Assembly: GCA_018242005.1 (NCBI GenBank)
Contig: JAFECU010000313.1
Span: forward strand, 1-64,000
Reading direction: 5' to 3'
DNA length: 64,000 nt
Origin: Pseudomonadota bacterium
Lineage (GTDB): Bacteria > Pseudomonadota > Gammaproteobacteria > Burkholderiales > Burkholderiaceae_C
Under the pieces are notes generated by a model. That model searched no databases. It was not told the origin of the DNA and saw nothing but the letters and a program-made list of their open reading frames with translations. The stretch's first letter is position 1. Every line of letters starts with the position of its first letter. Of this stretch, positions 2,934 to 16,818 are shown one piece after another. The translations under genes and the position numbers were made by a program.

Positions 2934-5372
2934 TCAATCGTATTGGGAGAAGCGGCTAGGGGTGTTCACGTTGGTGCCCAGCATCTGGTAACGCGGTACA
3001 TATTGCCTCAGTATGGTCAACGGGTTGGCCCCCAGGGACAGGCGCGAGAAGCCGGTGAACTCCAGCTGGAACATAAGCCGGGTGTTGGCCGTGACCAGGC
3101 TGTTTTGCAGGCGCTCCAGCACCACGCGGCCGACCCAGCAGCAGCTCTCGTATTCGACGCCGACCACGGCGTCCACCAGCTTGCGGTCCTGCAGGCTGTA
3201 GTTCAGGCGCCCCATGCTGTACCAGCGGCCGGCCTCGCGGCTCTTGTCATTGCCGCGACCGCCCCACCACAGGTCTGCGAGCGGCCATTGCCAGCCCAGG
3301 TCCAGCTGTTCGCTGGGCACGGTGATCAGGTCCGTGACCTTCTGCATGCGGTAGGCGGCACTGACGGTGCGGTAGTTGCCGGGCGAGTAGTTCACGGCCA
3401 CCGTGGTGCGCAGCGAACGGCCGGTCTTGGGGTTGTACTGCACCGTGGAATCCAGACCCCACTGCGGCGTCCAGTTGATGCCCGCGCCCAGCAGCACGTC
3501 GGACAGCCGTTCGCTGACCGGCGTGCCGCCCGGCAGGGTGACTTTCTGGTCGGCAAAGCGCAGGCGCTGCGCGATGCCAAAGCGCGCCGCCTGGGCGCCC
3601 GTATCGGGGTGGATCAGCCGCGTGGTCAGGCCCAGCGTGAGCAGGTTGTTGTCGGCAATGCGGTCGTTGCCGCCAAAGGCGTTCTCGGTATAGATGGAGG
3701 TGAAGTTGAAGTCATTGGCCGCCGTGTCGTACACGGGCAGCATGCTTTGGTCGCGGTACGGCGTGTAGGTGTAGAAGGCGCGCGGCTCCAGCGTCTGCAG
3801 GTAGTTGCCGCCGAAAAAGCGTGCGTCGCGCTCGAACACCAGGCCGCTGTCCAGGCTGAAGGTGGGCAGCGTGCGGCTGGCCGTGCTCTGGCCGCTCGCC
3901 AGAGGGCCCTCGAATTCGTACTGCGTGGCATGCAACTGCAGCCGCGGTGTGATGAAGCCGCCCGGCGCCAGAAACGGCCGACTGACCTGCGCCACGGCGT
4001 AGCTGCGCCTGGCATTGGGCTGGGTGTAGAAGCCAGGCGCCGCCTCGAAGCTGGTGTAGTCGGCGTCCACCGTGGCGTCCAGGCCGCCGCCGAGCTGCAT
4101 GGGGGCGTAGCGCCAGTGCAGCTGTGGCATGCGGTCGTAGGGCGGCGTGATGGGTGCGGTCGGATCCTGCAGCGTCTGCCACTTGAGGGTGCGCAGGCTG
4201 ACCTGGTTGTCGCCGCGCGCCCAGCCCAGCGAGGCCTCGCCGGGCAGCAGGCGCTGGGCGATCTGGACGCCCGGCGTGCCCGGCGTGGCCAAGCCGGACA
4301 GCCCGCTGGTGCGCAGCGAAAAATCGCGCCAGTAGTTGTCGTCGCTCACGCGCCGCACATTCACGTTCAGCGCCATGTCGCCCAGGGGCGTGTCCACCGC
4401 GCCGCGGTGCTTGACACTGTAGGCCCAGCGATTGATCTGGCGCAGCTGGTCGTTGGGCAGGTAGCTGGCGTTGAGCTCGCCGCTGTAGCGCGGCTCCAGG
4501 TAGCGGAATTCACCCGCCAGGCCCATGCCGCGCCGGCTCATGACCAGAGGGGTCAGGGTGGCATCGCGGTTGGGCGCGATGTTCCAGTAATAGGGCTGGA
4601 CATATTCCACGCCGCTCACGCTGTCGATGGCAATGGTCGGCGGCAGCAGGCCGGTCTTGCGCCGCTCCGACAGCGGAAAGCTGATGTGCGAGATGGGCAG
4701 TATGGGCACGCCCTTGAACTCCAGCACTCCATCCTCGGCCACGCCCACGTCCTCGGCGCGGTCCAGGCGTATGGTCTTGGCGCGGATGATCCAGTCGGGC
4801 TGCCAGCTGGCCTCGTCGGTGCGCTGGCAGGTGGTGTAGGTGGCATCGTGCACCACCGAGCGGTCGTGGTCTATGAAGTCCACGCGCGTGGCCTCGCCAT
4901 GGGCCGCGGTCTGCAGAAAGCGGTAGCGCGCGTCGCTGAAAAAGCCGCTGAAGGCGTCCACGCGCAGGTCCAGCAGTGTGCCGTCGTAGAGATTGCCGGC
5001 ACGATTCATGTGCACATGGCCGCGCGCCTTGGCGCGGTCGTCGGCCACGTCGTACTCCATCTCGTCGGCGCGGATCACGGTGTCGCCGCGGCGCAGCTCG
5101 GCGTTGCCCTCGATCGTGGCGCTGATGTCGGGCTGGCCCGTGATGTGGTCGCCGCGCACGAACACCGGCAGCTGCGGGCGGATGTCGGCCGGCAGGGTCT
5201 CCTGCAACCGCGGGCTGGTGCGCAGGGCGGGCATGGTCTCGGCCGGCTCGGCGGCGCCATCGCCGGCCTGGGCCAGCGCGGTCAGCGGCACGCCGCACAG
5301 CATCAGCGCCGCCAGCCGCGCCAGGGCACGGCGCGGCGGCAAGGCGCGGATGGCGGTCATGGTGGCAGGCAT
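2934..5372 (-). CDS. lptD: LPS-assembly outer-membrane protein LptD (OstA/Imp)
   Basis: LptD with lipoprotein LptE inserts lipopolysaccharide into the outer leaflet of the outer membrane. The product has a signal peptide ending near LTALAQ, an N-terminal OstA/LptA-like jellyroll (GNAELRRGDTVIRADEM region) and a long C-terminal beta-barrel ending in SRFSQYD. The adjacent Cys pair near the C-terminus (ESCCW) and the Cys of TYTTCQ are present, but no Cys lies at the mature N-terminus, so at most one of the two disulfides of the E. coli protein can form. Start choice is uncertain: ATGs at 5372 and 5360 precede the signal peptide, and the frame is open to 5453. It is divergent from the amgK-like gene. 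Confidence 0.95.
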   Translation of the reverse strand: MPATMTAIRALPPRRALARLAALMLCGVPLTALAQAGDGAAEPAETMPALRTSPRLQETLPADIRPQLPVFVRGDHITGQPDISATIEGNAELRRGDTVIRADEMEYDVADDRAKARGHVHMNRAGNLYDGTLLDLRVDAFSGFFSDARYRFLQTAAHGEATRVDFIDHDRSVVHDATYTTCQRTDEASWQPDWIIRAKTIRLDRAEDVGVAEDGVLEFKGVPILPISHISFPLSERRKTGLLPPTIAIDSVSGVEYVQPYYWNIAPNRDATLTPLVMSRRGMGLAGEFRYLEPRYSGELNASYLPNDQLRQINRWAYSVKHRGAVDTPLGDMALNVNVRRVSDDNYWRDFSLRTSGLSGLATPGTPGVQIAQRLLPGEASLGWARGDNQVSLRTLKWQTLQDPTAPITPPYDRMPQLHWRYAPMQLGGGLDATVDADYTSFEAAPGFYTQPNARRSYAVAQVSRPFLAPGGFITPRLQLHATQYEFEGPLASGQSTASRTLPTFSLDSGLVFERDARFFGGNYLQTLEPRAFYTYTPYRDQSMLPVYDTAANDFNFTSIYTENAFGGNDRIADNNLLTLGLTTRLIHPDTGAQAARFGIAQRLRFADQKVTLPGGTPVSERLSDVLLGAGINWTPQWGLDSTVQYNPKTGRSLRTTVAVNYSPGNYRTVSAAYRMQKVTDLITVPSEQLDLGWQWPLADLWWGGRGNDKSREAGRWYSMGRLNYSLQDRKLVDAVVGVEYESCCWVGRVVLERLQNSLVTANTRLMFQLEFTGFSRLSLGANPLTILRQYVPRYQMLGTNVNTPSRFSQYD

Positions 5373-5470
5373 GGCGTGAGGCAAGAGGGAACAATCCATG
5401 GATGGCGCGAGTCGGCGGCGCACGGCACCCATCAGGGGTGCGCCGCAGGCCACCCGGCCGGGCAGGGTCG

Positions 5471-5492
5471 GGTTTGTAGAATTGGATTATCC
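5471..5492 (+). promoter_or_regulatory. possible near-leaderless promoter of the amgK-like gene
   Basis: A TAGAAT hexamer at 5477-5482 looks like a sigma-70 -10 element, and the start codon follows at 5493. Initiation 6-8 bases after it would give a transcript with almost no leader, and no Shine-Dalgarno sequence is seen before the ATG. No good -35 hexamer is visible, so this remains a guess. Confidence 0.35.
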
Positions 5493-6689
5493 ATGAGCCA
5501 CCCATCCCCCCACTCCCCGGCCGGCGCCGGCAACGCCCACGCCGTGCACTGGAACGACCCCGCCCGCCAATCCGCCTTCCAGGCCTGGCTGGCCCCCCTG
5601 GCCGCCGCGCAGGGCCTGCAGCCCGCCAGCCTGCGCCCGGCGAGCGCCGACGCGAGCTTCAGGCGCTACCTGCGCATCGACGACGCCCAGGGCGCCAGCC
5701 GCATCATCATGGACGCCCCGCCCGACAAGGAGAACTGCCGCCCCTTCGTGCAGGTGCAGGCGCTGATGCAGGCCGCCGGCCTGCGCGTGCCGCAGGTGTT
5801 GGCCTGGGACGAGGCCCATGGCTTCATGCTGCTGTCCGACCTGGGGGCGCAGACGGCCATAGAGCGCCTGGACCCGGCCCGGCCTCAGGACGCCCATGCC
5901 TGGTATCTGCAGGCCGTGGACCTGCTCATCGACTGGCAAAAAGCCAGCCGCGAGGGCGTGCTGCCCGCTTATGACGAGGCGCTCCTGCGCCGCGAGCTGC
6001 AGCTCTTTCCCGACTGGTATGTGGCGCGCCACCGCCAGGTGCAGCTCGACGAGGTGCAGCAGGTCAGCCTGGGCCGCGCTTTTGACGCCATCGTGGCGCA
6101 AAACCTGGCCGCGCCCAGCGTCTATGTGCACCGCGACTTCATGATGCGCAACCTCATGGTGGCGGATGCAGCCCCCACGCTCCCCGCTGCGCGTGGTTCG
6201 CTGCCCCCCGAGGGGGCGCGTGTCGCCTTGGGGCGGCCCGGCGGCGACACCGATGCTCGCCTGGGCGTGCTCGACTTCCAGGACGCCGTCTACGGCCCCA
6301 TCACCTACGACATCGCCAGCCTGATGCGCGACGCCTTCATCAGCTGGGAGGAGGACTTCGTCATCGACATCACCGTGCGCTACTGGGAAAAGGCGCGCCG
6401 CGCCGGCCTCCTCGGCGCGGCGAGCAGTAGCGGCTGGGGCGCGGACTTCGGCGAGTTCTACCGCGCCGTGGACTTCATGGCGCTGCAGCGCCACCTCAAG
6501 GTGGCCGGCATCTTCGCGCGCCTGACGCTGCGCGACGGCAAGCCCAAGTACCTCGCGGATGCGCCGCGCTTCATCGCCTACATCCGCGCCACCTGCGCGC
6601 GCTACCGCGAACTCACGCCGCTCCTGCGCCTGGTGGACCAGATCGAGGGCACGCAGGCGGCCATGGGCTACGCGTTTGGGCGGGTGTAG
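5493..6689 (+). CDS. amgK: AmgK-like aminoglycoside-phosphotransferase-fold sugar kinase
   Basis: Homologues next to lptD phosphorylate the anomeric position of N-acetylmuramate and N-acetylglucosamine in a peptidoglycan salvage route that feeds UDP-MurNAc. The 398-residue product has an APH-like kinase fold: catalytic-loop HRDFMMRN (213-220) and metal-binding DFQD (261-264). Between them, residues about 226-253 (PTLPAARGSLPPEGARVALG region) are a translated copy of a dispersed repeat and are not typical of the family. The partner nucleotidyltransferase gene murU is not adjacent; rsmE follows instead. The family is clear, and activity despite the insertion is untested. Confidence 0.82.
   Translation: MSHPSPHSPAGAGNAHAVHWNDPARQSAFQAWLAPLAAAQGLQPASLRPASADASFRRYLRIDDAQGASRIIMDAPPDKENCRPFVQVQALMQAAGLRVPQVLAWDEAHGFMLLSDLGAQTAIERLDPARPQDAHAWYLQAVDLLIDWQKASREGVLPAYDEALLRRELQLFPDWYVARHRQVQLDEVQQVSLGRAFDAIVAQNLAAPSVYVHRDFMMRNLMVADAAPTLPAARGSLPPEGARVALGRPGGDTDARLGVLDFQDAVYGPITYDIASLMRDAFISWEEDFVIDITVRYWEKARRAGLLGAASSSGWGADFGEFYRAVDFMALQRHLKVAGIFARLTLRDGKPKYLADAPRFIAYIRATCARYRELTPLLRLVDQIEGTQAAMGYAFGRV
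6172..6248 (+). repeat. dispersed palindromic repeat, family A, copy 2 (inside amgK coding sequence)
   Basis: This segment repeats the palindrome CCCCCCGAGGGGG and the GGGGCGGCCCGGCGG tail seen in opposite orientation between rsmA and surA (1412-1489). Here it sits inside an open reading frame without disturbing it and adds about 26 codons between two conserved kinase motifs. Confidence 0.75.
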
Positions 6690-6737
6690 ATTCATCATCA
6701 AATTGCCTGATTAGCGACATGACTCAGACAAGGCTGC

Positions 6738-6832
6738 AGGCCCTCATCCCCGCCCTCTCCCAGAGGGAGAGGGAGTAAAGCCCGCGCGACCGATCGCCCT
6801 CACCCCTTTGGGGAGAGGGAGGGGTGAGGGGC
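6738..6832. repeat. GC-rich inverted repeat (CCCTCTCCC / GGGAGAGGG type)
   Basis: The space between the amgK-like gene and rsmE holds two facing hairpin units of the type CCCTCTCCC-GGGAGAGGG, with flanking CCCTCACCCC and GGGGTGAGGGG arms. The same type of element recurs at 15162-15274 and 37119-37160. It could act as a bidirectional transcription stop or be a miniature repeat; it has no coding capacity of its own. Confidence 0.7.
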
Positions 6833-6857
6833 CTGCAGCGGCCTGTACATCGTTAGA

Positions 6858-6912
6858 TCAAAATGGCCATTGGCGCTTATCCATCAAGCGTGAACAGCTA
6901 TTCTTTTTGAAA
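6858..6912 (+). repeat. dispersed repeat family B (GGCC..GCGCTT..AAGCG..CAGCTATT), copy directly before rsmE
   Basis: The sequence runs ATGGCCATTGGCGCTTATCC then ATCAAGCGTGAACAGCTATT and a T-rich tail. It closely matches 11021-11072 before jetC and, in reverse, 50037-50091. The inner GCGCTT and AAGCG can pair as a small hairpin. It ends two bases before the rsmE start codon, so it forms that gene's whole translation leader. I know similar motifs as high-copy repeats in Comamonadaceae. Confidence 0.7.
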
Positions 6913-6914
6913 AA

Positions 6915-7628
6915 ATGCCCCGCTTTTACTGCCCCCTGCCCCTGGCTCCCGGCGCCCAGATCACCCTGCCACCCACGGCCGCGCGCCACGTGCAGGTGCT
7001 GCGCCTGCAGCCGGGCGCGGTCATCACGCTGTTCAATGGCGAGGGCGGCGAGTGGAGCGCCACCGTCACGCGCATGGGCCGCAGCGACGTCGATGTCGAG
7101 GTCGGCACGCATGCGCCCCTGGAACGCGAGGCCGCGCGCGCCGTGCACCTGGTGGCCGGCATGCCCGCCAACGAGCGCATGGACTGGCTCGTGGAGAAGG
7201 CCGCCGAGCTGGGCGCCGCCAGCATCCAGCCGATTGTCGCGGCGCGCAGCGTGCTCAAGCTGGTCGGCGAGCGCGCCGCCCGGCGCCAGGCGCACTGGCA
7301 GGCCATTGCCGTTTCCGCCTGCGAGCAGTGCGGCCGCAACCGCGTGCCCACCGTGCATGCGCCGCTGCCCCTGGCCGAGTGGCTGGCCCAGGGCGCCCAG
7401 CAGGGCACGCGCCTGTTGCTGTCGCTGCGCGCAGGCGCCCGGCCGCTGCGCGAGGCCGCGGGCAGCGCCGGCCCCGTCTGGGTGCTGCACGGCCCCGAGG
7501 GCGGGCTGACCGAGCAGGAGGAAGACGCCGCCCTGGCCGCAGGCTTTGCCCCCGCCAGCCTGGGCACGCGCGTGCTGCGCGCCGAGACGGCCTCCGTCGC
7601 CGCACTGGCCCTGCTGGGGCTGGACTGA
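6915..7628 (+). CDS. rsmE: 16S rRNA (uracil-1498-N3)-methyltransferase RsmE
   Basis: RsmE methylates N3 of U1498 in 16S rRNA using SAM. The 237-residue product has the N-terminal PUA-like part (RFYCPLPLAPG through HVQVLRLQPG), the middle ERMDWLVEKAAELGA segment and the C-terminal SPOUT trefoil-knot motifs (HGPEGGLTEQE, LGTRVLRAETA) that bind SAM. Its stop codon overlaps the start of the next gene as TGATG, so translation of this housekeeping gene is coupled to jetA. No normal Shine-Dalgarno precedes the ATG because the leader is repeat family B. Confidence 0.95.
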   Translation: MPRFYCPLPLAPGAQITLPPTAARHVQVLRLQPGAVITLFNGEGGEWSATVTRMGRSDVDVEVGTHAPLEREAARAVHLVAGMPANERMDWLVEKAAELGAASIQPIVAARSVLKLVGERAARRQAHWQAIAVSACEQCGRNRVPTVHAPLPLAEWLAQGAQQGTRLLLSLRAGARPLREAAGSAGPVWVLHGPEGGLTEQEEDAALAAGFAPASLGTRVLRAETASVAALALLGLD

Positions 7629-9028
7629 TGGCAGGCGCTCCCCCCTTGCCCGCTGATGACGAGCAGGACGGCGGCGTAGGCGCCATCGCCGACTTCTTTC
7701 GCGACGCCGAAGCCGCCCAGGACCAGCCCCTGCTGTGGCTTCTCACGCGCCAGCAGTCGCTGGCCCAGGCGCTCAGCGGCCTGTTCCATGGTCCCGCGGC
7801 GCTGGTGCAGCTGCGCCTGTGGGTGTTTCTGCAGCTGGCCGGGCAGGGCGAGGCGCTGCTGCCGCGCGAGCGCATCGCCGAACTGTTTCACGCGCTGCGC
7901 CCCGAGGCGCTCGAGACCGTGCTCAAGCGCCTGCGCGACGTGGGCCTGCTGGCCTGGGACGAAACCCAGCGCGCCTACGCCCTGCCCCCGCTGGCCCAGC
8001 GCGTGGCCGGCCTGCTGGCGCCGCTGACGGGCACGCAGGGCGACGACGAGGACGGCGGCGAGCTGGCCACGCTGCTCGGCCAGGTGGTGGGCTCCAATCA
8101 GCTCGGCAACCTGGACGCCGCCCAGCTGCAACTGCTGCACGCGCAGCTGGCGCGCCTGCACGGCGAATTTGCCGACGCCATCGCCAGCGGCTCCGAGTTC
8201 CGCCTGCGCCAGGCGCGCCAGCGCTACGACCGCGCCGCCACTCTGATCGACCGCGCCTCCGAGGCCATCAGCACCATCATCGGCAACAGCCGCGGCCAGC
8301 TGGCGCTCGAACGCGCCGCGCGCGGCCTGGGCCAGGCCCAGTCGCGCCTGCTGGCCATGGCCAGCCAGTTCAACCGCGCACTGCAGCAAATGGACCGCCA
8401 GCGCGTCACGCTGGGCACCACCGGCCTGACCAGCACCGACGTCAAGCGCTGGCTGCAGGCCGCGCCGCAGCCCCATGAGCTGCTGGCCGGCGCGCTCGCC
8501 CAGCCGGGCTTTGTCGCCGCGCTGGCGCCGCACGAGCTGCTGGACGTGACCGAGGCCGAATTCGAGCGCGACCGCCCCCAGCCCACGCAGGCCGAGGAAC
8601 TGCCCGCCGCCCAGGACGCGCCCGAAGGCAGCCTCTCGGCCGTGGCCCTGCCGCGCGAACTGCACGACCTCAACGCCCTGCTGGGTGACTGGCAGCAGGC
8701 CGGCGGCGCGCCGCTGCGCAGCGTCGCCGACGCGCTGCTCGGCCCCCGGGCCCTGGCCACCCGCTACGCCCAGCTGGCCTACAAGGCCCAGCTCCTGCCC
8801 CTGCTGGGCGACCCCCAGGCCGAGGTGCTGCCCGGCGCCACCGGCGCCCTTGCACGTCAGCCCTGGCGCGTGCAATGGCTCGCTGAGCAGCAGGCGCTGG
8901 CGCACGACGACATCGCCCTGCTGTCGCTCGGCCACCTGGTACGCAGCGGCCACGAAGAGCCGCCTGCACCACCACCACCCGCCGACACCCAGACCGCCCC
9001 CGCCCCGGAGACCCCGCCCCATGGATGA
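7628..9028 (+). CDS. jetA: Wadjet kleisin-like subunit JetA (MukF/MksF-type)
   Basis: This 466-residue protein shares position and general design with JetA, the kleisin of Wadjet SMC complexes that bridges the JetC heads. The N-terminal 130 residues look like a winged-helix domain (LLPRERIAELFHALRPEALETVLKRL region). A helical middle (about 170-290, rich in Gln, Arg and Ala) and a Pro-rich tail follow. Its ATG overlaps the rsmE stop, and its own stop overlaps the jetB start by 8 bases, so the three genes should be co-translated. Primary sequence alone gives only moderate support; the SMC and JetD genes downstream carry the assignment. A chromosome-organising MksF is the alternative. Confidence 0.7.
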   Translation: MAGAPPLPADDEQDGGVGAIADFFRDAEAAQDQPLLWLLTRQQSLAQALSGLFHGPAALVQLRLWVFLQLAGQGEALLPRERIAELFHALRPEALETVLKRLRDVGLLAWDETQRAYALPPLAQRVAGLLAPLTGTQGDDEDGGELATLLGQVVGSNQLGNLDAAQLQLLHAQLARLHGEFADAIASGSEFRLRQARQRYDRAATLIDRASEAISTIIGNSRGQLALERAARGLGQAQSRLLAMASQFNRALQQMDRQRVTLGTTGLTSTDVKRWLQAAPQPHELLAGALAQPGFVAALAPHELLDVTEAEFERDRPQPTQAEELPAAQDAPEGSLSAVALPRELHDLNALLGDWQQAGGAPLRSVADALLGPRALATRYAQLAYKAQLLPLLGDPQAEVLPGATGALARQPWRVQWLAEQQALAHDDIALLSLGHLVRSGHEEPPAPPPPADTQTAPAPETPPHG

Positions 9029-9653
9029 CGCCGCCCTGCTTGCCGCCGAACTGCTGGCCCGCCGCTGGCTGCCGCGCAACCACCGCCTGGTGCGCCGCGC
9101 GCTGGTCGACGCCGAACTCTTCGCCCAGCTCGAGCAGCGCCTGGCCCAGGTCGGCCTGCGCTTCGTCGACAACATCTACGCCGAGCATGTCAGCGTCGCC
9201 CTGTTGCCCGCGGCCGACCAGGCCGTGCTGGGCGAGGGCGGCGCGGCCGCCAACAACAACCTGGAGCTGCCGCGCGACGCCCAGGCCCTGCTCGTCGTGC
9301 TGTGGGCCCTCATCATCCTGCCCAAGCGCGAGCGCCAGACCAGCCGCCAGGCCAGCACCGAGGAAACACAGAGCGACTTCTTCCCCGGCGCCAAGCCCCT
9401 GCCGGGTGCGGCCAGCGTCAGCCCCGTGGTGTCGTACAAGGCGCTGCTGCAGGACTACGGCGCGCAGCTGGGCAAAAAGCTGCGGCTGGACGTCCACCTG
9501 AAACTGCTCGAGCGCCACGGCTTCATCCTGCGCCGCCAGGACGACATCGCCGAAGGCCCGTTGCTGGACCTGCTGCTCGACTACGACGTGCTGGCCCCGC
9601 GCATCCTGGATGGGGCACTGGCGGATGTGCTGGCGCGGGAAGCCGCGGCGTAG
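9021..9653 (+). CDS. jetB: Wadjet JetB-like subunit (MukE/MksE-type)
   Basis: The 210-residue product fits JetB, the KITE-type winged-helix dimer that binds the JetA kleisin. It has an N-terminal helix-rich part, a central hydrophobic strand (QALLVVLWALIILPKRE, about 92-108) and a C-terminal winged-helix-like section (LGKKLRLDVHLKLLERHGFI). The ATG at 9021 lies within the last codons of jetA and starts the only frame with this composition. About 195 bp without a gene follow before the methyltransferase gene, an unusual break in a Wadjet operon. Assignment rests mainly on order and size. Confidence 0.68.
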   Translation: MDDAALLAAELLARRWLPRNHRLVRRALVDAELFAQLEQRLAQVGLRFVDNIYAEHVSVALLPAADQAVLGEGGAAANNNLELPRDAQALLVVLWALIILPKRERQTSRQASTEETQSDFFPGAKPLPGAASVSPVVSYKALLQDYGAQLGKKLRLDVHLKLLERHGFILRRQDDIAEGPLLDLLLDYDVLAPRILDGALADVLAREAAA

Positions 9654-9848
9654 CAGGAGCGGAAGTTGGATGCTGCGCTCGCGCAGAAAGCGCCTGAGGG
9701 GGTGGCGTAAAGCGCCGTCCGATCGGAGAGTGCAGCTGGCTGGCTGCTATGGTTGTGGCTTGGGACTTGCCTGCGCAACGAACGGCGTCATTTGACGGCG
9801 CGGTCTCCACTCCAAAGCGCCACACCACCCCCTTCTGCCATCCTCGCA

Positions 9849-10508
9849 ATGCAACCGTCCACCATCGCCTGCGCCTACGACACCCTGGCCGAAAACTGGC
9901 TGGACGCCCAATTCGGCCATGTCGATGGCATGCGCCAACACCGCCAGGCGCTGGCGTTTCTTGGCGCGCAGACGGGCGGGTGGGCGCTCCATGTGGGCTG
10001 CGGCTGCAGCACGCGTTTCAACTCCTTGCTGCGCGGCCGGGGATTGCAGCTGGAGGGGATCGATGTCTCGGCGCGCATGGTGGCCCTGGCGCGCGCGGCC
10101 GATGCGGACGTGCGGGTGCACCACGGCGATGTGTGCGACTGGGAACCGGTGCGCCGCTACCGCTTCATCTCGGCATGGGACAGCATCTGGCATGTGCCCC
10201 TGCAGGCGCAGCGCCCCCTGATGCTCAAGCTGATGCGCGCGCTGGAGCCGGGCGGGGTGTTCGTGTTCTCGGCCGGCGGGCTGGACGCACCCGCCGAGCA
10301 TGTGGACGCCACCATGGGCCCGGCGATGTACTACAGCACGCTGGGCATTCCCGGCCTGCTCGATGTCATTGCCGAGGCCGGGTGCCTGTGCCGGCATCTG
10401 GAGTTTGACCAGTACCCGCAAAAGCATTTGTTCGTCGTCGCCCAGCGCGGCGACGGGCCGAGCCCTGGCGCACCGGCGCCGGCGTCGGCCGGAGCGCAGG
10501 CCCGATGA
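9849..10508 (+). CDS. class I SAM-dependent methyltransferase
   Basis: The 219-residue product has a Rossmann-type methyltransferase fold with motif I ALHVGCGCSTRFNSLL (about 45-60), the acidic post-motif LEGIDVSARMV (about 68-78), VHHGDVCDWEP and the motif after strand 4 (RYRFISAWDSIWHVP). Strand 5 carries ALEPGGVFVFSAGG. The type resembles small-molecule methyltransferases; the substrate is unknown. It ends by a 4-base ATGA overlap with the acetyltransferase gene. The pair stands between jetB and jetC on the same strand. It may be a passenger or an accessory of the SMC system; nothing in the sequence decides this. Confidence 0.85.
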   Translation: MQPSTIACAYDTLAENWLDAQFGHVDGMRQHRQALAFLGAQTGGWALHVGCGCSTRFNSLLRGRGLQLEGIDVSARMVALARAADADVRVHHGDVCDWEPVRRYRFISAWDSIWHVPLQAQRPLMLKLMRALEPGGVFVFSAGGLDAPAEHVDATMGPAMYYSTLGIPGLLDVIAEAGCLCRHLEFDQYPQKHLFVVAQRGDGPSPGAPAPASAGAQAR

Positions 10509-11002
10509 TGCGCACGCTGCAGATCCGCCCCTATGCCCCCGCCGACGCGGAGGCGCTGCGCGCGGTGTTCGAGGCGTCGGTGCGGGTGCTGGCGGCGCCC
10601 TACTACACGCCGCAGCAGATTGCCGCCTGGGCGCCGCACGACCACGACGCGCCCGCCTGGGCCCGGCGCCTGGCGGACAACCGGCCCTGGGTGTGCGTGG
10701 TGGACGGAGCGCCCGCCGGCTTTGCCGATCTGCAGCCCTCGGGCGACATCGACCAGTTCTTCGTCGCGCCGGGCCATGCCCGCCAGGGCGTGGGGGCGGC
10801 GCTGATGGCGCACCTGGAGCAGCAGGCGCGCGCGCAGCGCTGCGCGGCGATGTTCTCGCACGTCAGCCTGGCGGCGCAGGCGTTTTTTGCCCACCATGGT
10901 TTTGTGCTGCAGGAGCAGCGCCTGGTCACGCTGCGCGGCGTGCAGTTCGCCAATGCCTTGATGCGCAAGGCGCTGGTGTGCGGCAGCGACAATGGACAAT
11001 AG
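10505..11002 (+). CDS. GNAT-family N-acetyltransferase
   Basis: The 165-residue product is a single GNAT domain: N-terminal [20 protein letters not shown], strand-4 DQFFVAPGHARQGVGAALMAHLE holding the acetyl-CoA pyrophosphate loop RQGVGA (about 98-103), and C-terminal FFAHHGFVLQEQRLVTLRGV. It resembles the YafP-like branch acting on small molecules or peptides; the real substrate cannot be told. The start codon lies inside the stop of the methyltransferase gene (ATGA), so the two are made together. About 80 bp containing a family B repeat separate it from jetC. Confidence 0.88.
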   Translation: MMRTLQIRPYAPADAEALRAVFEASVRVLAAPYYTPQQIAAWAPHDHDAPAWARRLADNRPWVCVVDGAPAGFADLQPSGDIDQFFVAPGHARQGVGAALMAHLEQQARAQRCAAMFSHVSLAAQAFFAHHGFVLQEQRLVTLRGVQFANALMRKALVCGSDNGQ

Positions 11003-11020
11003 CCCACGGTTCATTTGAGT

Positions 11021-11072
11021 CTTTTTGGCCGTTGACGCTTGCTGGACAAGCGCGAACAGCTATTGTTTTTTA
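11021..11072 (+). repeat. dispersed repeat family B, copy directly before jetC
   Basis: The sequence TTTTTGGCCGTTGACGCTTG then GACAAGCGCGAACAGCTATT with a T-run aligns base by base with the copy before rsmE (6858-6912), differing at roughly a quarter of positions. It ends eight bases before the GTG start of jetC and leaves no room for a standard Shine-Dalgarno. Confidence 0.7.
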
Positions 11073-11079
11073 AGTATCC

Positions 11080-13914
11080 GTGTTCCACCTCCAAACCCTA
11101 GAACTCGTCCACTGGGACTACTGCCAGCGCGTGGCGCTGCCGCTGGATGCGTCCATCATCACCATCGCCGGGCCCAATGGCTCGGGCAAGACGACGCTGC
11201 TGGACGCCATGCGCACGCTGCTGGGCCTGCGCTGCTCGAGCCCGCGCGACTGGCGCACCTATGCGCGCCACGCGGGCGCGCAGACCGCGTGGCTGCGCGC
11301 CGTGGTGGACAACCGGCCGCAGGGGCGGCAGAGCTCCAGCCGCCCGTTTGCACGCCGCCTGCTGTATGGCGACCAGGTCACGCTGGCCTGCCGCATCGAC
11401 AGAAACGGCGGTGACTGGCAGCGCCGCTACTGCCTGCTCGAAGGCGACGTGGCCGTCGAGCGGCTGCAGGACATGCCCGACAAGGACGTGGGCTACATGG
11501 GCGTGGAGGCCTGGGGCCGCGTGCTGGCGGCGGCGGGCCTGTCGCCGGCGATTGCGCGCGTGCTGTCGCTCGAGCAGGGCCAGACCGACCGGCTGTGCGA
11601 GCTCTCGCCGCGCGAGCTCTTGCGCCTGGTGTTCGACGTGTTTGGCGACCAGCAGGTGCTCGACGCCTACGACCAGGCGCGCGAGCACCAGCAGCAGCTC
11701 TCGCGCGAGATGGCGCAGGCCGAGCACGAGCTCGACCACAGCCGCGCCCAGCTGGCCGAGCTGCAGCACCGCGTGACCAGCTACAAGAGCTGGCGGCTGA
11801 AACTCGCCGAGCGCGAGCGCCTGGCGACCGAGGTGCTGCCCGTGCTCGACTGGTGGGGCCAGCGCCAGCAGCTGGCGCAGCACGCGCGCGAGCTGCGCCG
11901 CCAGAAGGCCCAGCACCGCGCGTCTCTGGCCGAGCAGGCGGTGCACAACAAGCGCCTGTTGCACCTGCTGGACGAGGCCGCGCGCGCCGAGCAGCAGGCC
12001 GACGCGCTGCTGGCCGAGCGCGACCAGGCGCGCACGCAGCTCGACGATGCCCAGCGCCACGAGGCGCCGCTCGAGCAGCTCACCCGGCGCGAGCAGGAGC
12101 TGCTGGCGCTGGTCGACAAGGGCAGCGACGCCGAAGCGCTGCAGGCGCACCTGGCGCAGCTGCAGGCGCGTGCCCAGGAGCTGCAGGACGCGCACGGTGC
12201 GCTGCTGCCAAAACGCAAGGCTGCGGCAGAGCAGCTGGCGCAGCTCGACGGCCAGCGCCTGCCGCCGCCTCCGCCCGATGTGCTGCAGATGCGCCGCGCG
12301 CTGGCCGGCGAGGGCATGGGCCACTGCTTCGTGGCCGAGGTCGTCGAGGTGCGCGACGAGCGCTGGCGCGCCGCCATCGAGGGCGTGCTGCGCGGTCAGC
12401 GCTGGGTAGCGCTGCTCGACAAGGAATCCGACCTGGCCCAGGCCTGGGAGATCGGCGAGCGCCAGCGCTTTCGCCACTACATCGTCGGCCCGGGCGAGGC
12501 CGCCATCCCCGGCGAGGCCGGCACGCTGGCCGCTCATGTCAAATTCACCGCGCCCGTGCCGCGCTGGCTGGTGCAGCAGCTGCAGCAGCTGCGCTGCGTC
12601 GAGGGTCCGCAGGAGGGCAAGCGCCTGGGCGGGCAGTGGATCACGCCCCAGGCCTATATGCACGACGGGCGCGGCGCGCGCTCGGTCTGGGTGGAGCCGC
12701 AGCACTACCAGTTTGGCGCCGCGGCCGTGCAGTCGCGCCGCCAGGCGCTCGAGCGCGACATTGCGGCGCTGGATGCACAGCTCGCGCCGCTGCAGCAGGA
12801 GCTGCTGGCGCTCAAGCGCCAGATGACCGACACGCGCCGCGCGCTCGAAGGCCACAGCGCCGCCGAGGAGCTGGCGCGGCGCAGCGACGAGTTTGCCCAG
12901 GCGCGCGCCCAGCTGCCCGCGGCCAGGCAGGCGCGCATGGCCGCCGCCACGCGCTGGCAGCAGCTCGAGCAGGAGGCCGGCCGCGCCCACGACCGCCACC
13001 GCGCGTTTGCCGAGGAGCACAAACGCCTGGAGGCGCAGCTCGCGCGCCAGCGCAGCGACAGCGAACGCGCCGCGCAGGACTGGAGCGCGCGCCGGCGCCA
13101 GCATCTCGAGGCCTGCGCGCGCAGCCAGGCGCAGCGCGCGCAGTTTCCGCCGCGCTGGATCGCGCCCGCGCAGATCGCCGAGCTCGTGGACCACTACGAC
13201 AACGCCAAGCAGGCCGAGCTGCGCCTGCAGGCCGTCGAGCAGGAGCTGGCGCAGGGCCCGTGGGAGCAGGACGAGACCGTGGAGGAGCGCCACCGCCGCA
13301 TGGAGGTGACGGTGCGTGAGCAGGCCGCCAGCCTCTCCGACCACCAGGTCAAGAACGCCCAGGCCGAGACCGCCGTGCTCAACGCCCGCGCCAGCTACAT
13401 CGAGGTGTTGCGCTCCACCGTGCGGCGCTACCGGCGCAACATCCAGGAGCTGGGCCAGCTCGCGGGCGTGGAGGTGGCGGCCGAGCTGCCGCTGCTGGAC
13501 AACGACGACCATGTGCTCGCGCAGGCCGGCCTGAAAGTCCACTTCGCCTTCGACGGCAAGGGCCAGATCGGCCTGAACGACGGCGAGGCCTCGGGCGGGC
13601 AGCAGGTGATCAAGTCGCTGATCCTGCTCGTGGGCCTTCTCAAGGACGAGGAGAGCGGCTCGGGCGGCTTTGTCTTCATCGACGAGCCCTTCGCCCACCT
13701 GGACGTGCGCAACATCCAGCTCGTCGGCCACTTCCTGCGCAGCACGCGCGCGCAATATGTGCTCACCACGCCGATCACGCACAACCTGGAGGTCTTCGAG
13801 CCCGCCGAGATCACGCTGGTGACGAGCAAGAAGCCCGCCGGCAGCCGCTGGGCCCCGCCTATCGCCGTGGCCAAGCGGCGCGGCGTGCCGCAGCTCGCGC
13901 CCATGAGCGCATGA
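11080..13914 (+). CDS. jetC: Wadjet SMC-like ATPase JetC (MukB/MksB-type)
   Basis: This 944-residue protein is an SMC-type ABC ATPase. It has an N-terminal head with Walker A GPNGSGKTT (31-39), long Ala/Arg/Gln/Glu-rich coiled coils (about 210-400 and 550-780), a hinge-like globular part between them (about 405-545, GEGMGHCFVAEVVEV region) and a C-terminal head with signature SGGQQ (about 838-842) and Walker B FVFIDEPFAHLD (about 864-875). In Wadjet, JetC loops DNA and licenses JetD to cut small circular plasmids. At 944 residues it is rather short for the family, mainly in the coiled coil. The start is GTG; the next gene begins inside its stop (ATGA). Confidence 0.85.
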   Translation: MFHLQTLELVHWDYCQRVALPLDASIITIAGPNGSGKTTLLDAMRTLLGLRCSSPRDWRTYARHAGAQTAWLRAVVDNRPQGRQSSSRPFARRLLYGDQVTLACRIDRNGGDWQRRYCLLEGDVAVERLQDMPDKDVGYMGVEAWGRVLAAAGLSPAIARVLSLEQGQTDRLCELSPRELLRLVFDVFGDQQVLDAYDQAREHQQQLSREMAQAEHELDHSRAQLAELQHRVTSYKSWRLKLAERERLATEVLPVLDWWGQRQQLAQHARELRRQKAQHRASLAEQAVHNKRLLHLLDEAARAEQQADALLAERDQARTQLDDAQRHEAPLEQLTRREQELLALVDKGSDAEALQAHLAQLQARAQELQDAHGALLPKRKAAAEQLAQLDGQRLPPPPPDVLQMRRALAGEGMGHCFVAEVVEVRDERWRAAIEGVLRGQRWVALLDKESDLAQAWEIGERQRFRHYIVGPGEAAIPGEAGTLAAHVKFTAPVPRWLVQQLQQLRCVEGPQEGKRLGGQWITPQAYMHDGRGARSVWVEPQHYQFGAAAVQSRRQALERDIAALDAQLAPLQQELLALKRQMTDTRRALEGHSAAEELARRSDEFAQARAQLPAARQARMAAATRWQQLEQEAGRAHDRHRAFAEEHKRLEAQLARQRSDSERAAQDWSARRRQHLEACARSQAQRAQFPPRWIAPAQIAELVDHYDNAKQAELRLQAVEQELAQGPWEQDETVEERHRRMEVTVREQAASLSDHQVKNAQAETAVLNARASYIEVLRSTVRRYRRNIQELGQLAGVEVAAELPLLDNDDHVLAQAGLKVHFAFDGKGQIGLNDGEASGGQQVIKSLILLVGLLKDEESGSGGFVFIDEPFAHLDVRNIQLVGHFLRSTRAQYVLTTPITHNLEVFEPAEITLVTSKKPAGSRWAPPIAVAKRRGVPQLAPMSA

Positions 13915-15104
13915 GCCGCCACCTGCGCACGCGCGGCGCCGGCGCCTGGGGCGCGGCCAGCCTGCAGGCCGTGGCCGCGCTGCGCCCGGCGCAACAGGCG
14001 CTGATGCGCGACTGGCTGCGCGGCGACGCCAGCCAGCGCCGCTGGCAGACGCTGCTGGACGCGGCCGGCCCCGACCGGCTGGAGCTGGCCGACGCGCTGC
14101 GCGAGCAGCTGCTGGCCTGCGGCGCGCTGCAGGCCAGGGAGCGCCTGGCCCGCGGGCAGTGGCAGGTGGAGCACATCGTCTGGGCCGACCTGGCCGCCCT
14201 GCAGCAGGCGCTGGGCCTGCGCGACGCGGCCACGCGCGCGGCCGACCAGCTGGCGCTGGCCCGCGACGCCGATGCACTGGCGCTGCACGCCCCCTGGCTG
14301 CAGGGCGCCGTGCAAGACCTTGCCAGCGGCCGCTACGCCGAGGCCACGCGCCGCGCGCGCCTGCAGCTGCTGCAGGCACTGGCCGACTGGCAGGCCGAGC
14401 AGCGCTTTGGCCTGCAGCGCGACTTTGCCCAGTTCGCGCGCGGCCAGACCAAGGCCATCAGCGCCGGCGAATGGGACTGGCTGGCGCGCCATGTCGATCT
14501 GGCGGCGCGCGGCATTGCGCGCTTTGCGCCGCTGCTGTGGCTGGGCGGCACGCTGTCGCTGCAAGCCCTCCAGGGCCGCGTGGACGTGGCCGCGGCCCGG
14601 CTGTGCGGCCTGCCCGTGGAGCTGTTTGCCGCGCCCACCGAGGCGCTGGCGCCCGAGCGCTACTGGCTCATCGAGAACCGCGCGAGCTTCGAACGCCAGG
14701 CCTTGGGCGCCGCGCCCGGCACCTGCGTGGTCTGGCTGCCGGGCCAGCCGCCGACGAGCTGGCAGCAGGCCATGGCCTGGCTGGTCGCCGCAGCGCCCGC
14801 GCCGGCCCAGATCAGCTGCGACCCGGACCCGGCCGGCGTGGCCATCGCCCTGACCGCAGGCGCGCTGTGGAGCGCGGCGGGCCTGCCCTGGCAGCCGCAC
14901 CGCATGGACCGAAGCGACTGGGAGAGCGCCCCGGCGATCGCCCTGACGGCCGAGGACAGGCTGTGGCTCGAACGCCTGCAGGCCCGCGCCGACCTGCCCG
15001 AGCCGCTCGCGCGCCTGTGCGCCGACCTGCCCGAGCCGCTCGCGCGCCTGTGCGCCGACCTGCGCGCGACCGGACGCAAGGCCGAGCAGGAGGCCTGGCT
15101 CTGA
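13911..15104 (+). CDS. jetD: Wadjet nuclease subunit JetD (DUF3322/DUF2220, Toprim)
   Basis: JetD is the topoisomerase VI-like nuclease of Wadjet, cutting DNA that the SMC motor has looped. The 397-residue product has an N-terminal helical half like the DUF3322 arm and a C-terminal Toprim-like half. There, the acidic residue of IENRASFERQ (Glu about 255) and the DPDPAG motif (Asp about 304 and 306) match the metal-binding Glu and DxD of the fold. It overlaps jetC by 4 bases. A 33-bp tandem duplication near the 3' end repeats ADLPEPLARLC. Presence of this subunit separates a Wadjet system from housekeeping MksBEF condensin. Confidence 0.75.
   Translation: MSRHLRTRGAGAWGAASLQAVAALRPAQQALMRDWLRGDASQRRWQTLLDAAGPDRLELADALREQLLACGALQARERLARGQWQVEHIVWADLAALQQALGLRDAATRAADQLALARDADALALHAPWLQGAVQDLASGRYAEATRRARLQLLQALADWQAEQRFGLQRDFAQFARGQTKAISAGEWDWLARHVDLAARGIARFAPLLWLGGTLSLQALQGRVDVAAARLCGLPVELFAAPTEALAPERYWLIENRASFERQALGAAPGTCVVWLPGQPPTSWQQAMAWLVAAAPAPAQISCDPDPAGVAIALTAGALWSAAGLPWQPHRMDRSDWESAPAIALTAEDRLWLERLQARADLPEPLARLCADLPEPLARLCADLRATGRKAEQEAWL
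14988..15053 (+). repeat. 33-bp perfect tandem duplication in jetD
   Basis: Two identical 33-base units (14988-15020 and 15021-15053) encode ADLPEPLARLC twice in succession, and the first nine bases of a third unit follow. The reading frame is kept. This looks like a recent slippage or duplication event in the protein's C-terminal helix. Confidence 0.95.
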
Positions 15105-15161
15105 TGGGAGCGCCGGCATCTTGCCGGCAAGACCGCGCGCGACGCATGATTGGCACCGGTT

Positions 15162-15274
15162 TTCACTCCCTCGCCCCCTTGGGGGAGAGGGCGGGGGTGA
15201 GGGGGTGTTTGGAGCGCACGGCTCATGGCGCGCGCCCTCACCCCGGCCCTCTCCCGCCAGCGGGAGAGGGAGTT
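15162..15274. repeat. GC-rich inverted repeats between jetD and the M20 peptidase gene
   Basis: The convergent gap between jetD and the M20 peptidase gene contains CTCGCCCCC-TTGGGGGAGAGGGCGGGGG and, further on, GCCCTCACCCC with CCCTCTCCCGCCAGCGGGAGA. The element is of the same type as at 6738-6832. Its position between converging genes suits a two-way terminator. Confidence 0.7.
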
Positions 15275-15280
15275 ACGAAC

Positions 15281-16744
15281 TCAGCCCGGCATCGCAGCCA
15301 TCACCTGGGCCACCGCCGCCGTGAGGCGCTTGGCGTAGGGCACGTGCAGGAATTCGTTGGGTCCATGGGCGTTGCTCTTGGAGCCGAGCACGCCGCAGAC
15401 CATCATCTGCGCGCGGGGAAAGCCCTGGCTCAGCATGTTCATGAGCGGAATCGTGCCGCCCTGGCCGATGTAGCCGCAGGGGGAGCCGAAATGCGCCTGG
15501 CTGGCGGCGTTCAGGGACTGCTCGAACCACGGGGCGATGGCCGGTGCGTTCCAGCCGCTGGCGGCATGGTCGGGCGCGAAGGTGACCCTGGCCTGGTAGG
15601 GCGCGTTGTCCTCCAGCAGGGCCTTGAGCTCCTGCGCGCTGGCGGCGGCGTCCACCAGCGGTGGCAGGCGCAGGCTGAGCTTGAAGGCGGTGTAGGGGCG
15701 CAGCACGTTGCCCGCGTCCCTGAGCGCCGGGAAGCCCTCGGCGCCGGTGACGCTCAGCGTGGGCTCCCAGGTGCGCTTGAGCAGCGCCTGCACCGGGTCG
15801 GTTGTCGTGGGCAGGGCGAACACCGTGCTGCCGCCGCAGTCGGCATGGGCCCAGGGGAAGCGCCTGTAGACCTCCTCGCCCAGGATGGCGGCCGTGGCCC
15901 TGGCCTGGGCCAGGCGGTCGGCCGGCACCTCGCAGTGAAAGCCGGCGGGCAAGAGGCGCCCGGTGGCGCTGTCTTCCAGCCGGTCCAGCACCATGCGCAT
16001 GATGCGAAATGACGAGGGCACGAGGCCCGAGGAGTCGCCCGAGTGCACGCCCTCGGTCAATATCTCGACCTTCAGCGTGCCGCTGGCCATGCCGCGCAGG
16101 CTGGTGGTGAGCCACAGCTGATCGTAGTTGCCGGCACCCGAATCGAGGCAGATGACCAGGGCCACGTCGCCCATGCGGTCTTTCAGCGCGTCGATGTAGG
16201 GCAGCAGGTCGGCGGAGCCGCTTTCCTCGCAGGTCTCGATCAGGCCGACGATGCGCGGATGGGCCACGCCCTGGCGCTTCAGTTCCTGCACGGCGGCGAT
16301 GCTGGCGTAGACCGCATAGCCGTCGTCGGCGCCGCCGCGGCCGTAAAGCCTTCCGTCCTCGTACTTCGGCGTCCACGGGCCCAGGTCGGCGCGCCAACCT
16401 TCAAACTCGGGCTGCTTGTCCAGGTGGCCGTACATCAGCACCGTCTGGGTGGACTGCGGCCGGGTGGCCGCGACCTCGAAGAACAGCACGGGCGTGCGGC
16501 CGGGCAGGCGCACGACCTCGAGCGTGAGTCCCTCGACCTTCTGCGCCTCGACCCACTGGGCGGCGTTGCGCACCACGGTCTCGATGTGGCCGAGCTCGCG
16601 CCAGTCGGGCGCAAAGCCGGGCGATTTGGCGGGGATGCGGATGTAGTCGGTGAGCTGGTGCACGATGTCCTCGTCCCACACGCGGCTCAGGCGTTCGAGC
16701 GCGAGCGCGGGGTCGAGGGCGGTGGCGGGCAGGCGGGCGTTCAT
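15281..16744 (-). CDS. M20-family metallo-dipeptidase
   Basis: The 487-residue product is an M20/M25/M40 dinuclear zinc peptidase of the cytoplasmic dipeptidase type. The metal and catalytic region MYGHLDKQPEFEGW (His, then Asp) lies at about 109-122, the bridging acid in YGRGGADDGYAVYAS, the catalytic Glu pair in IVGLIETCEESGSADL and a further ligand in CLDSGAGNYDQLW. A dimerisation domain occupies the middle (about 225-390). It probably cleaves carnosine-like or general dipeptides. It stands alone on the minus strand between repeats and a small gap. Confidence 0.92.
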   Translation of the reverse strand: MNARLPATALDPALALERLSRVWDEDIVHQLTDYIRIPAKSPGFAPDWRELGHIETVVRNAAQWVEAQKVEGLTLEVVRLPGRTPVLFFEVAATRPQSTQTVLMYGHLDKQPEFEGWRADLGPWTPKYEDGRLYGRGGADDGYAVYASIAAVQELKRQGVAHPRIVGLIETCEESGSADLLPYIDALKDRMGDVALVICLDSGAGNYDQLWLTTSLRGMASGTLKVEILTEGVHSGDSSGLVPSSFRIMRMVLDRLEDSATGRLLPAGFHCEVPADRLAQARATAAILGEEVYRRFPWAHADCGGSTVFALPTTTDPVQALLKRTWEPTLSVTGAEGFPALRDAGNVLRPYTAFKLSLRLPPLVDAAASAQELKALLEDNAPYQARVTFAPDHAASGWNAPAIAPWFEQSLNAASQAHFGSPCGYIGQGGTIPLMNMLSQGFPRAQMMVCGVLGSKSNAHGPNEFLHVPYAKRLTAAVAQVMAAMPG

Positions 16745-16818
16745 GGCAGATCCTGTGGCGGTTGACGCAAACGTTCAGCATACGCCAGCGGCCGCGCCCC
16801 TTGGCGGGGCGTGGTTCC

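What the first reader, a model, noticed from the sequence alone, without database searches (positions are those of the whole stretch)
7628..15104. Wadjet (JetABCD)-like defence system in a split operon
A kleisin-like, a MukE-like, an SMC ATPase (Walker A GPNGSGKTT, signature SGGQQ, Walker B FVFIDEP) and a Toprim nuclease-like gene occur in jetA-jetB-jetC-jetD order. Wadjet complexes restrict circular plasmids. What stands out is the split architecture, with about 1.4 kb and two unrelated enzymes between jetB and jetC, the short SMC (944 residues) and the coupling to rsmE. JetA and JetB are assigned mainly from order; JetC motifs and the JetD acidic motifs are visible.
Basis: partly seen in the sequence, partly recalled or inferred. 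Interest (0 to 1): 0.75.

Follow-up and report, generated by a model that had tools for sequence, protein, structure and literature searches.

The report
Plasmid-defence machine with optional DNA cutter
The window holds a complete but unusual four-gene bacterial machine that probably finds and cuts small circular DNA such as plasmids; in most relatives examined the cutting gene is missing while the other three genes stay conserved, which suggests that the motor part does something useful on its own.

Summary
JetC is an SMC ATPase and best matches PADLOC JetC1 (3e-32). JetD matches JetD1 (4e-14), folds like topoisomerase VI-A/Spo11 and keeps E255, D304 and D306. JetB is probably a DUF4194 protein, mainly through relatives. 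JetA looks like a MukF-type kleisin by fold ranking only. So this is a diverged Wadjet-like locus.

Three stressed features are ordinary: the 944-residue SMC is normal for this family, the rsmE link was seen only in one clade, and the "split" is a local insertion.

The notable point lies elsewhere: the nuclease is optional. jetD is intact in 41, a remnant in 2 and absent in 111 of 154 classified loci. Presence changes 23 times on the JetC tree (at least 19 by supported branches). Without jetD, jetABC is under strong purifying selection (median dN/dS 0.06-0.11 in 14 pairs), with no detectable column-level relaxation. In the window's genus one chromosomal site holds jetABCD, jetABC or neither. 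I read this as Wadjet-type restriction here, built on a core that is often selected without its nuclease.

The parts
6915..7628 (+). rsmE, 16S rRNA (uracil1498-N3)-methyltransferase; neighbour, not part of the system; its stop overlaps the jetA start (TGATG)
   Evidence: NCBIfam NF008692 3.3e-94, over its cut-off; this neighbour seen only in the closest clade
7628..9028 (+). jetA-like, MukF/MksF-type kleisin, 466 aa
   Evidence: Lies before jetB in the relatives whose stretch reaches that far; no PADLOC JetA match; AlphaFold model (mean pLDDT 80, pTM 0.40), best Foldseek matches are chains of MukBEF and MukE-MukF entries at ranks 1-3, but E only 5.7e-3 and TM about 0.13
9021..9653 (+). jetB-like KITE (MksE/MukE type), 210 aa; overlaps jetA by 8 bp
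   Evidence: Pfam DUF4194 weakly in the window protein (0.041); 31 of 39 family members match at E<=1, best 2.4e-6
9849..10508 (+). class I SAM-dependent methyltransferase inserted between jetB and jetC; local cargo
   Evidence: Pfam Methyltransf_25 1.8e-9; found in 1 of 40 genomes searched at E<=1e-20, the own; a related stretch lies on a Comamonas plasmid
10505..11002 (+). GNAT N-acetyltransferase inserted between jetB and jetC; local cargo
   Evidence: Pfam Acetyltransf_10 7.9e-16; also in the gap of L029 (78%) and, 44% identical, L076
11080..13914 (+). jetC-like SMC ATPase, 944 aa, GTG start; Walker A GPNGSGKTT, signature SGGQQ, Walker B FVFIDEP
   Evidence: PADLOC JetC1 3e-32; profile matches PDB 8dk1_C JetC at 1e-4 among 12 SMC and Rad50 chains; the three motifs are present in 94 of 94 classified rows, the window included
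13911..15104 (+). jetD-like Toprim nuclease, 397 aa, overlaps jetC by 4 bp; E255, D304, D306 conserved
   Evidence: PADLOC JetD1 4.3e-14 over residues 194-334; hhalign 6.1e-10 to an annotated JetD; Foldseek Topo VI-A/Spo11, best 1.1e-8
14986..15063 (+). 33-bp unit, 2.4 perfect copies, inside jetD (adds 11 residues relative to the nearest relative)
   Evidence: Tandem Repeats Finder 100% matches; alignment
15281..16744 (-). M20-type peptidase-like gene, far side of the site; neighbour
   Evidence: Neighbours rsmE directly in a same-genus genome without the system; family name assigned by eye, not by a family search

Best explanation
The window carries a complete, diverged, type-I-like Wadjet operon. 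JetC, JetA and JetB would form a dimeric SMC motor that reels in DNA. On a small circle the two motors meet and trigger JetD, a Topo VI-A-like Toprim nuclease, to cut the circle. Shown here: the four open frames, JetC and JetD homology, conserved acidic residues, the JetD fold, and the insertion between jetB and jetC. Inferred from studied Wadjets: loop extrusion, circle sensing and cleavage. Across the order the JetABC core is kept and selected whether or not JetD is present. So the core most likely has a second, nuclease-independent function on DNA (condensin-like, or silencing of extrachromosomal DNA), and JetD is a repeatedly lost cutting module.
For: JetC and JetD family matches, JetB DUF4194 in relatives, JetA fold ranking, JetD fold and conserved acids. 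jetD present 41, remnant 2, absent 111 of 154 classified rows; 23 changes on the JetC tree, at least 19 by starred branches; fewer than in any of 500 shuffles (mean 36.5), so the state is inherited for a while and then switches. JetC-JetD identities correlate, r=0.86 over 27 rows, 0 of 2000 permutations as high; the nearest row is the same by both proteins in 20 of 27. Remnants in L075/G010 and L157. ATPase motifs in 65 of 65 nuclease-less JetC. dN/dS medians without jetD: jetA 0.105, jetB 0.097, jetC 0.064 (14 pairs); with jetD 0.116, 0.193, 0.097 (7-8 pairs). No excess of columns conserved only with jetD. No convincing JetD anywhere in 21 of 26 JetC-bearing genomes of the family sample.
Against: No activity data. 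JetA has no statistically significant match to a kleisin by sequence or fold; a few of its relatives weakly match other PADLOC models instead (LeoA in 4 of 39, best 8.5e-5). JetC also matches other SMC-like defence ATPases (mad3 1.7e-20, LmuB 3e-15), and its best JetC1 stretch lies in residues 202-765, outside the heads. In Cupriavidus necator, deleting a Wadjet called type III changed neither transformation nor plasmid stability (PMC12645576, passages), so a predicted Wadjet need not restrict. ScpA is present in 26 of 26 genomes, so a condensin role is not needed for want of another SMC. Loci were found through JetC, so broken jetC loci are under-sampled. Gain by recombination cannot be excluded for some of the 23 changes.
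Confidence: 0.68

Rival explanations
1. The family is a housekeeping MksBEF-like chromosome condensin; JetD is an accessory with little effect, and the window's locus is not mainly a defence system.
For: 111 of 154 classified loci lack jetD. Purifying selection without it. Among 29 order-level loci read behind jetC, an rlmL-like gene follows in 4 and a proB-like gene in 2 (names by eye). P. [quoted passage not shown]
Against: jetC is patchy: 26 of 150 genomes of the family, 4 of 8 of the genus, and in a same-genus genome without it rsmE and the M20 gene are only about 260 bp apart. Every one of 26 JetC-bearing genomes checked also has ScpA. JetD, where present, keeps E255, D304 and D306 in 19 of 19 aligned rows.
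Confidence: 0.3
2. JetD is the moving part: ancestral jetABC was nuclease-free, and jetD was gained repeatedly behind jetC.
For: Clean presence or absence at the same spot in 4 of 11 pairs compared, with collinear flanks. A JetD C-terminal part lies on a mobilizable plasmid. Sizeable nuclease-less clades exist.
Against: JetD and JetC identities correlate (r=0.86) and nearest rows agree in 20 of 27. Two loci hold remnants. Loci with jetD lie on both sides of the midpoint root. 14 of 15 JetD-bearing genomes of the order sample also have JetC.
Confidence: 0.15
3. Nuclease-less JetABC works with a different nuclease or effector supplied in trans.
For: The core is selected without jetD and shows no relaxation by the column test, as if partner surfaces were still used.
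Against: No dominant gene follows jetC: the largest same-strand first-gene clusters hold 6, 5 and 4 of 94 loci. No convincing JetD-type protein elsewhere in 21 of 26 genomes. Effectors of other kinds far away were not searched for.
Confidence: 0.12
4. The window's system is decaying: insertion, tandem duplication in jetD and raised dN/dS mark a system on its way out.
For: 33-bp perfect tandem duplication in jetD; a 1.4-kb insert between jetB and jetC; dN/dS against L029 of 0.31 for jetD and 0.50 for jetA.
Against: All four frames are open with intact motifs; the duplication is in frame; the insert genes are co-directional, and a consensus scan found no more terminator-like sites than shuffles (3 against a mean of 2.6). 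The jetA value may reflect a recombinant stretch.
Confidence: 0.1

Closest known systems
Wadjet type I (JetABCD)
   Same: Gene order; SMC ATPase and Topo VI-A-like Toprim nuclease; best PADLOC models are JetC1 and JetD1
   Different: JetA and JetB match no PADLOC model; JetC is 944 aa against JetC1 profile lengths of 1097-1215; the nuclease is absent in most relatives examined
MksBEFG / EptABCD (actinobacterial plasmid defence)
   Same: Same four-part logic, with MksG equal to JetD (PMC10123090, passages; PMC10586767 section 4)
   Different: No sequence comparison with actinobacterial members was made here
MksBEF of Pseudomonas (nuclease-free condensin)
   Same: Same three-gene core as the nuclease-less relatives of this locus; [quoted passage not shown]
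   Different: The window still has jetD; here presence and absence alternate many times among close relatives. No sequence comparison with the Pseudomonas proteins was made
MukBEF of E. coli
   Same: JetA's best fold matches are chains of MukBEF and MukE-MukF entries
   Different: MukB is 1486 aa (from its coordinates); Pfam MukB only 0.01; no hhalign signal to MukF or MukE

Membership tests
Wadjet (JetABCD) | SMC-family ATPase with Walker A, signature and Walker B | tested here: met
Wadjet (JetABCD) | Toprim nuclease JetD, Topo VI-A-like fold, catalytic acids | tested here: met
   E255, D304 and D306 invariant in 19 of 19 aligned rows. That these are the metal-binding acids is inferred from the Toprim pattern
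Wadjet (JetABCD) | KITE subunit JetB | tested here: inconclusive
   DUF4194 in 31 of 39 members at E<=1, best 2.4e-6; the window protein only 0.041, below the curated cut-off. That DUF4194 is the JetB family is recalled; an annotated Wadjet has a DUF4194 gene in that place. No hhalign signal to that protein or to MukE
Wadjet (JetABCD) | kleisin subunit JetA | tested here: inconclusive
   Top three fold matches are from MukBEF and MukE-MukF entries but E>=5.7e-3 and TM about 0.13; no sequence signal
Wadjet (JetABCD) | four genes adjacent in one operon | tested here: inconclusive
   Same strand and order, but a 1,426-bp insert between jetB and jetC; contiguous in nearly all relatives
Wadjet (JetABCD) | restricts or cuts small circular DNA | not testable with these tools
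   Needs experiment
Wadjet type I as modelled by PADLOC | matches to models of all four proteins, JetA to JetD | tested here: not met
   JetC1 and JetD1 matched; JetA and JetB no match at E<=1
MksBEF (nuclease-free) | no JetD/MksG nuclease with the core | tested here: not met
   jetD is intact in the window; absent in 111 of 154 classified loci
MukBEF | MukB-type SMC with MukB N-terminal domain | tested here: not met
   Pfam MukB E 0.01, 16 bits against a cut-off of 23

The most novel reading that the evidence does not exclude
In Burkholderiales, JetABC is a free-standing anti-plasmid or DNA-silencing motor that works without cutting, much as Smc5/6 silences extrachromosomal DNA in eukaryotes, and JetD is a detachable cutting module that is shed repeatedly. 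One chromosomal site within a genus toggles between restrict (ABCD), silence (ABC) and nothing.
Probability: 0.22. Interest if true: 0.85.

Novelty: new variant of a known kind. Interest (0 to 1): 0.55.

Why it matters
How the same SMC machinery can serve chromosome upkeep in one place and plasmid destruction in another is an open question (raised in the abstract of PMC10586767). This family offers a natural experiment: close relatives, even within one genus and at one site, that differ in having the nuclease, and a core that is conserved either way. Defence finders that require all four models would probably miss the window's locus, since JetA and JetB match none of PADLOC's models (inference).

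Tried and rejected
Direct sequence links for JetA and JetB: PADLOC, Pfam, NCBIfam, PDB profiles and hhalign against an annotated Vibrio JetA/JetB and E. coli MukF/MukE gave nothing convincing apart from DUF4194 for JetB (unrelated controls 102, 103, both of which scored better than the tests). The annotated Vibrio jetC is interrupted by an IS3 transposase, and hhalign with its first part matched only a 64-column internal stretch (E 1e-5). Alternative effector behind jetC: no dominant gene (in that script the order-level loci on the minus strand were not turned round, so their downstream frames were re-read, which failed for one locus, L176). Relaxation of JetABC columns after nuclease loss: none beyond shuffles. 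RNA families at 5000-18000: none at gathering score. PADLOC 'mad2' and 'mad3' matches of the methyltransferase and JetC were set aside as generic methyltransferase and ATPase matches. Plasmid location: 2 of 72,556 plasmid records hold a JetC match at E<=1e-20, both Variovorax, the best place covering about half of the protein.

Rows dropped or set by hand. The 156-row tree also left out L220 (over-long frame), L176 (same place as L221), L155 (the window), L222 (JetD without JetC) and G478 (fragment, not fetched). Two rows were unclassified because the contig ends behind jetC. L203 was set to 'jetD present' by hand because the gene is cut by a contig end and the rest lies on another contig. L075 was set to 'degraded' by hand. 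In one search two joins of long branches were flagged as doubtful. The dN/dS pairs were picked by hand from the tree and some share a locus, so they are not independent.
Full report
WHAT IS THERE. On the + strand lie rsmE 6915-7628, jetA 7628-9028, jetB 9021-9653, a SAM methyltransferase 9849-10508, a GNAT acetyltransferase 10505-11002, jetC 11080-13914 and jetD 13911-15104. jetA overlaps jetB by 8 bp and jetC overlaps jetD by 4 bp. The window lies on contig 237 of a draft genome of 3.96 Mb in 313 contigs. Its nearest named relatives on the JetC tree are Comamonadaceae.

IDENTITY OF THE FOUR PROTEINS. JetC's best PADLOC match is JetC1 at 3e-32, over residues 202-765; weaker matches include mad3 (1.7e-20) and LmuB (3e-15), as expected for SMC-like ATPases. 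A JetC profile finds the solved JetC 8dk1_C at 1e-4 among 12 SMC and Rad50 chains. JetD matches JetD1 at 4.3e-14 over residues 194-334. Its model has mean pLDDT 92. The 9 PDB fold matches with E<=0.001 are all from Topo VI or Spo11 entries, best 1.1e-8, over about 280-310 columns; no entry described as JetD is among the 50 rows shown. A profile comparison with an annotated JetD on a Vibrio plasmid gives 6.1e-10. E255, D304 and D306 are invariant in 19 of 19 aligned JetD rows. JetB is linked to DUF4194 mainly through relatives (31 of 39 members at E<=1, best 2.4e-6; window protein 0.041). JetA has no sequence link to a kleisin. Its model (mean pLDDT 80, pTM 0.40) has its best three fold matches in MukBEF and MukE-MukF entries (chain lengths 431, 335 and 321, so MukF rather than MukE by length), with MukF(1-287) at rank 13, but with E of 5.7e-3 or worse and TM about 0.13. 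The kleisin label therefore rests on position and fold ranking and is not proven.

THE SPLIT. In the loci where both genes are whole, jetB and jetC overlap or lie within about 20 bp, apart from the window (1,426 bp), L029 (664 bp), L031 (419 bp), L152 (2,620 bp) and L034/L086 (82 bp, the same contig). L076 has about 5.9 kb. L074 shows no jetA or jetB match within the 3.4 kb upstream of its jetC. The L076 insert holds an HTH protein, a GNAT gene, a VapB/VapC-like pair and an ISL3-like transposase (names by eye). The window's methyltransferase was found in no other of 40 genomes searched; a 74%-identical stretch covering 35% of the insert lies on a Comamonas plasmid. The insert is therefore most likely recent cargo, not a design feature. 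Promoter- and terminator-like patterns are not more frequent than in shuffles (0 against 0.2, 3 against 2.6), so a single transcript remains possible. JetC length is 935-948 aa-950 aa in the order-level set, the over-long L220 aside.

THE NUCLEASE IS OPTIONAL. In a sample of 150 genomes of the same family, 26 have JetC. The 25 loci fetched besides the window all have jetA and jetB matches with it. jetD is intact in 4 of the 26, reduced to fragments in 1 (G010), and not convincingly found anywhere in 21. Short weak matches were taken as chance, the best being G077 at 0.0019 over 40 residues and G033 at 0.0098 over 47. The PADLOC model also missed the intact jetD of G062 and G024, so the own profile carries the weight. 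In a sample of 399 genomes of the order, 63 have JetC (E<=1e-60) and 15 have JetD (E<=1e-20); 14 of the 15 are among the 63. There only 2 or 4 first-look candidates per genome were scored, so those absences are weaker evidence. A rescan of up to 6 kb behind jetC in the 65 with a 27-row JetD profile found nothing at E<=0.1. One search kept the best 80 of 164 relatives, so its loci lean towards the window's kin.

THE SWITCHES. On the 96-row JetC tree jetD presence needs 17 changes, of which starred branches force 15. On a 156-row tree it needs 23, of which 19 are forced (41 present, 111 absent, 2 remnant, 2 unclassified). These are quick trees with one kind of support, and two joins of long branches were flagged as doubtful. 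Direction: JetC and JetD identities correlate (r=0.86, 27 rows, 0 of 2000 permutations as high; nearest row the same in 20 of 27). L075/G010 holds three jetD fragments, and L157 holds a 45-residue N-terminal piece, lost or interrupted. Most changes are therefore probably losses. Some regain by recombination cannot be excluded.

HOW IT IS LOST. I compared 11 pairs of loci. In four (L079/L083, L107/L081, L133/L137, L088/L086) the sequence is collinear to the end of jetC or its last 25 bp and resumes 24-61 bp after the jetD stop; L133/L137 has a further 1.3-kb difference downstream. In the other seven, further insertions, replaced flanks or remnants were seen (L079/L080, L077/L078, L151/L139, L143/L149, and the window against L075, L031 and L076). 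Junctions of eight pairs are shown.

ONE SITE, THREE STATES. Of 8 genomes of the window's genus, 4 have JetC and 2 have JetD; two of the eight (G540, G543) are only 78% and 82% complete. At the rsmE-M20 site the window and G004 hold jetABCD. G539 holds jetABC, with about 80 bp from the jetC stop to the M20 gene. G142 has rsmE and the M20 gene about 260 bp apart. G542 and G543 have neither jetC nor jetD, with 1.7-1.8 kb between the two neighbours. G541 shows rsmE but no M20 match in the stretch read.

SELECTION WITHOUT THE NUCLEASE. Walker A, signature and Walker B are present in 65 of 65 nuclease-less JetC and 28 of 28 with the nuclease. Of the 65 nuclease-less loci jetA is whole in 61, stops before the end of the tblastn match in 1 (L149), has no start in the stretch in 1 and is missing from the stretch in 2; jetB is whole in 64 and cut in 1. 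Of the 28 with jetD, jetA is whole in 23, stops before the end of the match in 3, and is cut or missing in 2; jetB is whole in 27. Because loci were found through JetC, this count is biased towards intact jetC. In the whole-genome searches, which read through stops, an internal stop is listed for 1 of 26 and 1 of 63 JetC matches. Median dN/dS by a simple Nei-Gojobori count is 0.105, 0.097 and 0.064 for jetA, jetB and jetC in 14 hand-picked nuclease-less pairs, against 0.116, 0.193 and 0.097 in 7-8 pairs with jetD; jetD itself is 0.20. Single values reach 0.37 (jetA, L051/L152) and 0.50 (jetA, window/L029). Within two mixed clades no column class is conserved only where jetD is present beyond 300 shuffles (jetA 1 column, reached by 75 shuffles; jetB and jetC 0). 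ScpA is present in 26 of 26 JetC-bearing genomes, so a standard SMC-ScpAB is likely there too.

READING. For the window, a complete Wadjet-like restriction system is the best reading, with the mechanism (loop extrusion, self-collision, JetD activation) taken from the review PMC10586767, section 4, read whole. For the family, the core earns its keep without JetD, by a condensin-like or DNA-silencing function that I cannot name with certainty. The review already proposes that P. [quoted passage not shown] Loss as such is therefore not a new idea. I did not see the frequency of loss and the conserved core of this family described in what I read or in the listings of my paper searches. These cover only an open-access library, and beyond the listings I read only the papers named here (passages of PMC10512200, and PMC12645576).

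Noticed in passing
window 6915-16744 against L029: Mosaic divergence: jetA 76%, jetB 85%, rsmE 80% but jetC 94%, jetD 92-94%, M20 95%, which suggests a recombination boundary between jetB and jetC.
   Followed up: partly
L076 100-6000: A jetB-jetC gap of 5.9 kb with an HTH protein, GNAT, VapB/VapC-like pair and ISL3-like transposase: the gap may be an insertion hot spot in this clade.
   Followed up: partly
L154 1066-1731 (Diaphorobacter sp. HDW4A plasmid, 42 kb): A JetD C-terminal part, annotated as hypothetical protein, on a mobilizable plasmid for which no JetC match was listed.
   Followed up: partly
NZ_LR594690.1 and NZ_LR594663.1 (Variovorax): Large plasmids with half-length JetC matches; in the first, the JetD match lies about 27 kb from JetC.
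   Followed up: no
L223 3061-7783 (Vibrio nigripulchritudo plasmid): An annotated Wadjet whose jetC is interrupted by an IS3 transposase on a plasmid typed as conjugative.
   Followed up: no
L054 (G012 contig 83): A more canonical JetD1-type protein (PADLOC 4e-48) in a genome without a JetC match of the present family at E<=1e-20.
   Followed up: no
L122, L126-L129 behind jetC: A thioesterase-like gene overlaps the end of jetC in five loci of one nuclease-less clade; a WYL-type regulator is first downstream in six others (names by eye).
   Followed up: no
window 9948-10448: Part of the inserted methyltransferase is 74% identical in DNA to a methyltransferase gene on a 643-kb Comamonas antarctica plasmid.
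   Followed up: no
window 11098-14379 (- strand): A 1093-codon open frame antisense to jetC, most likely an effect of high G+C.
   Followed up: no
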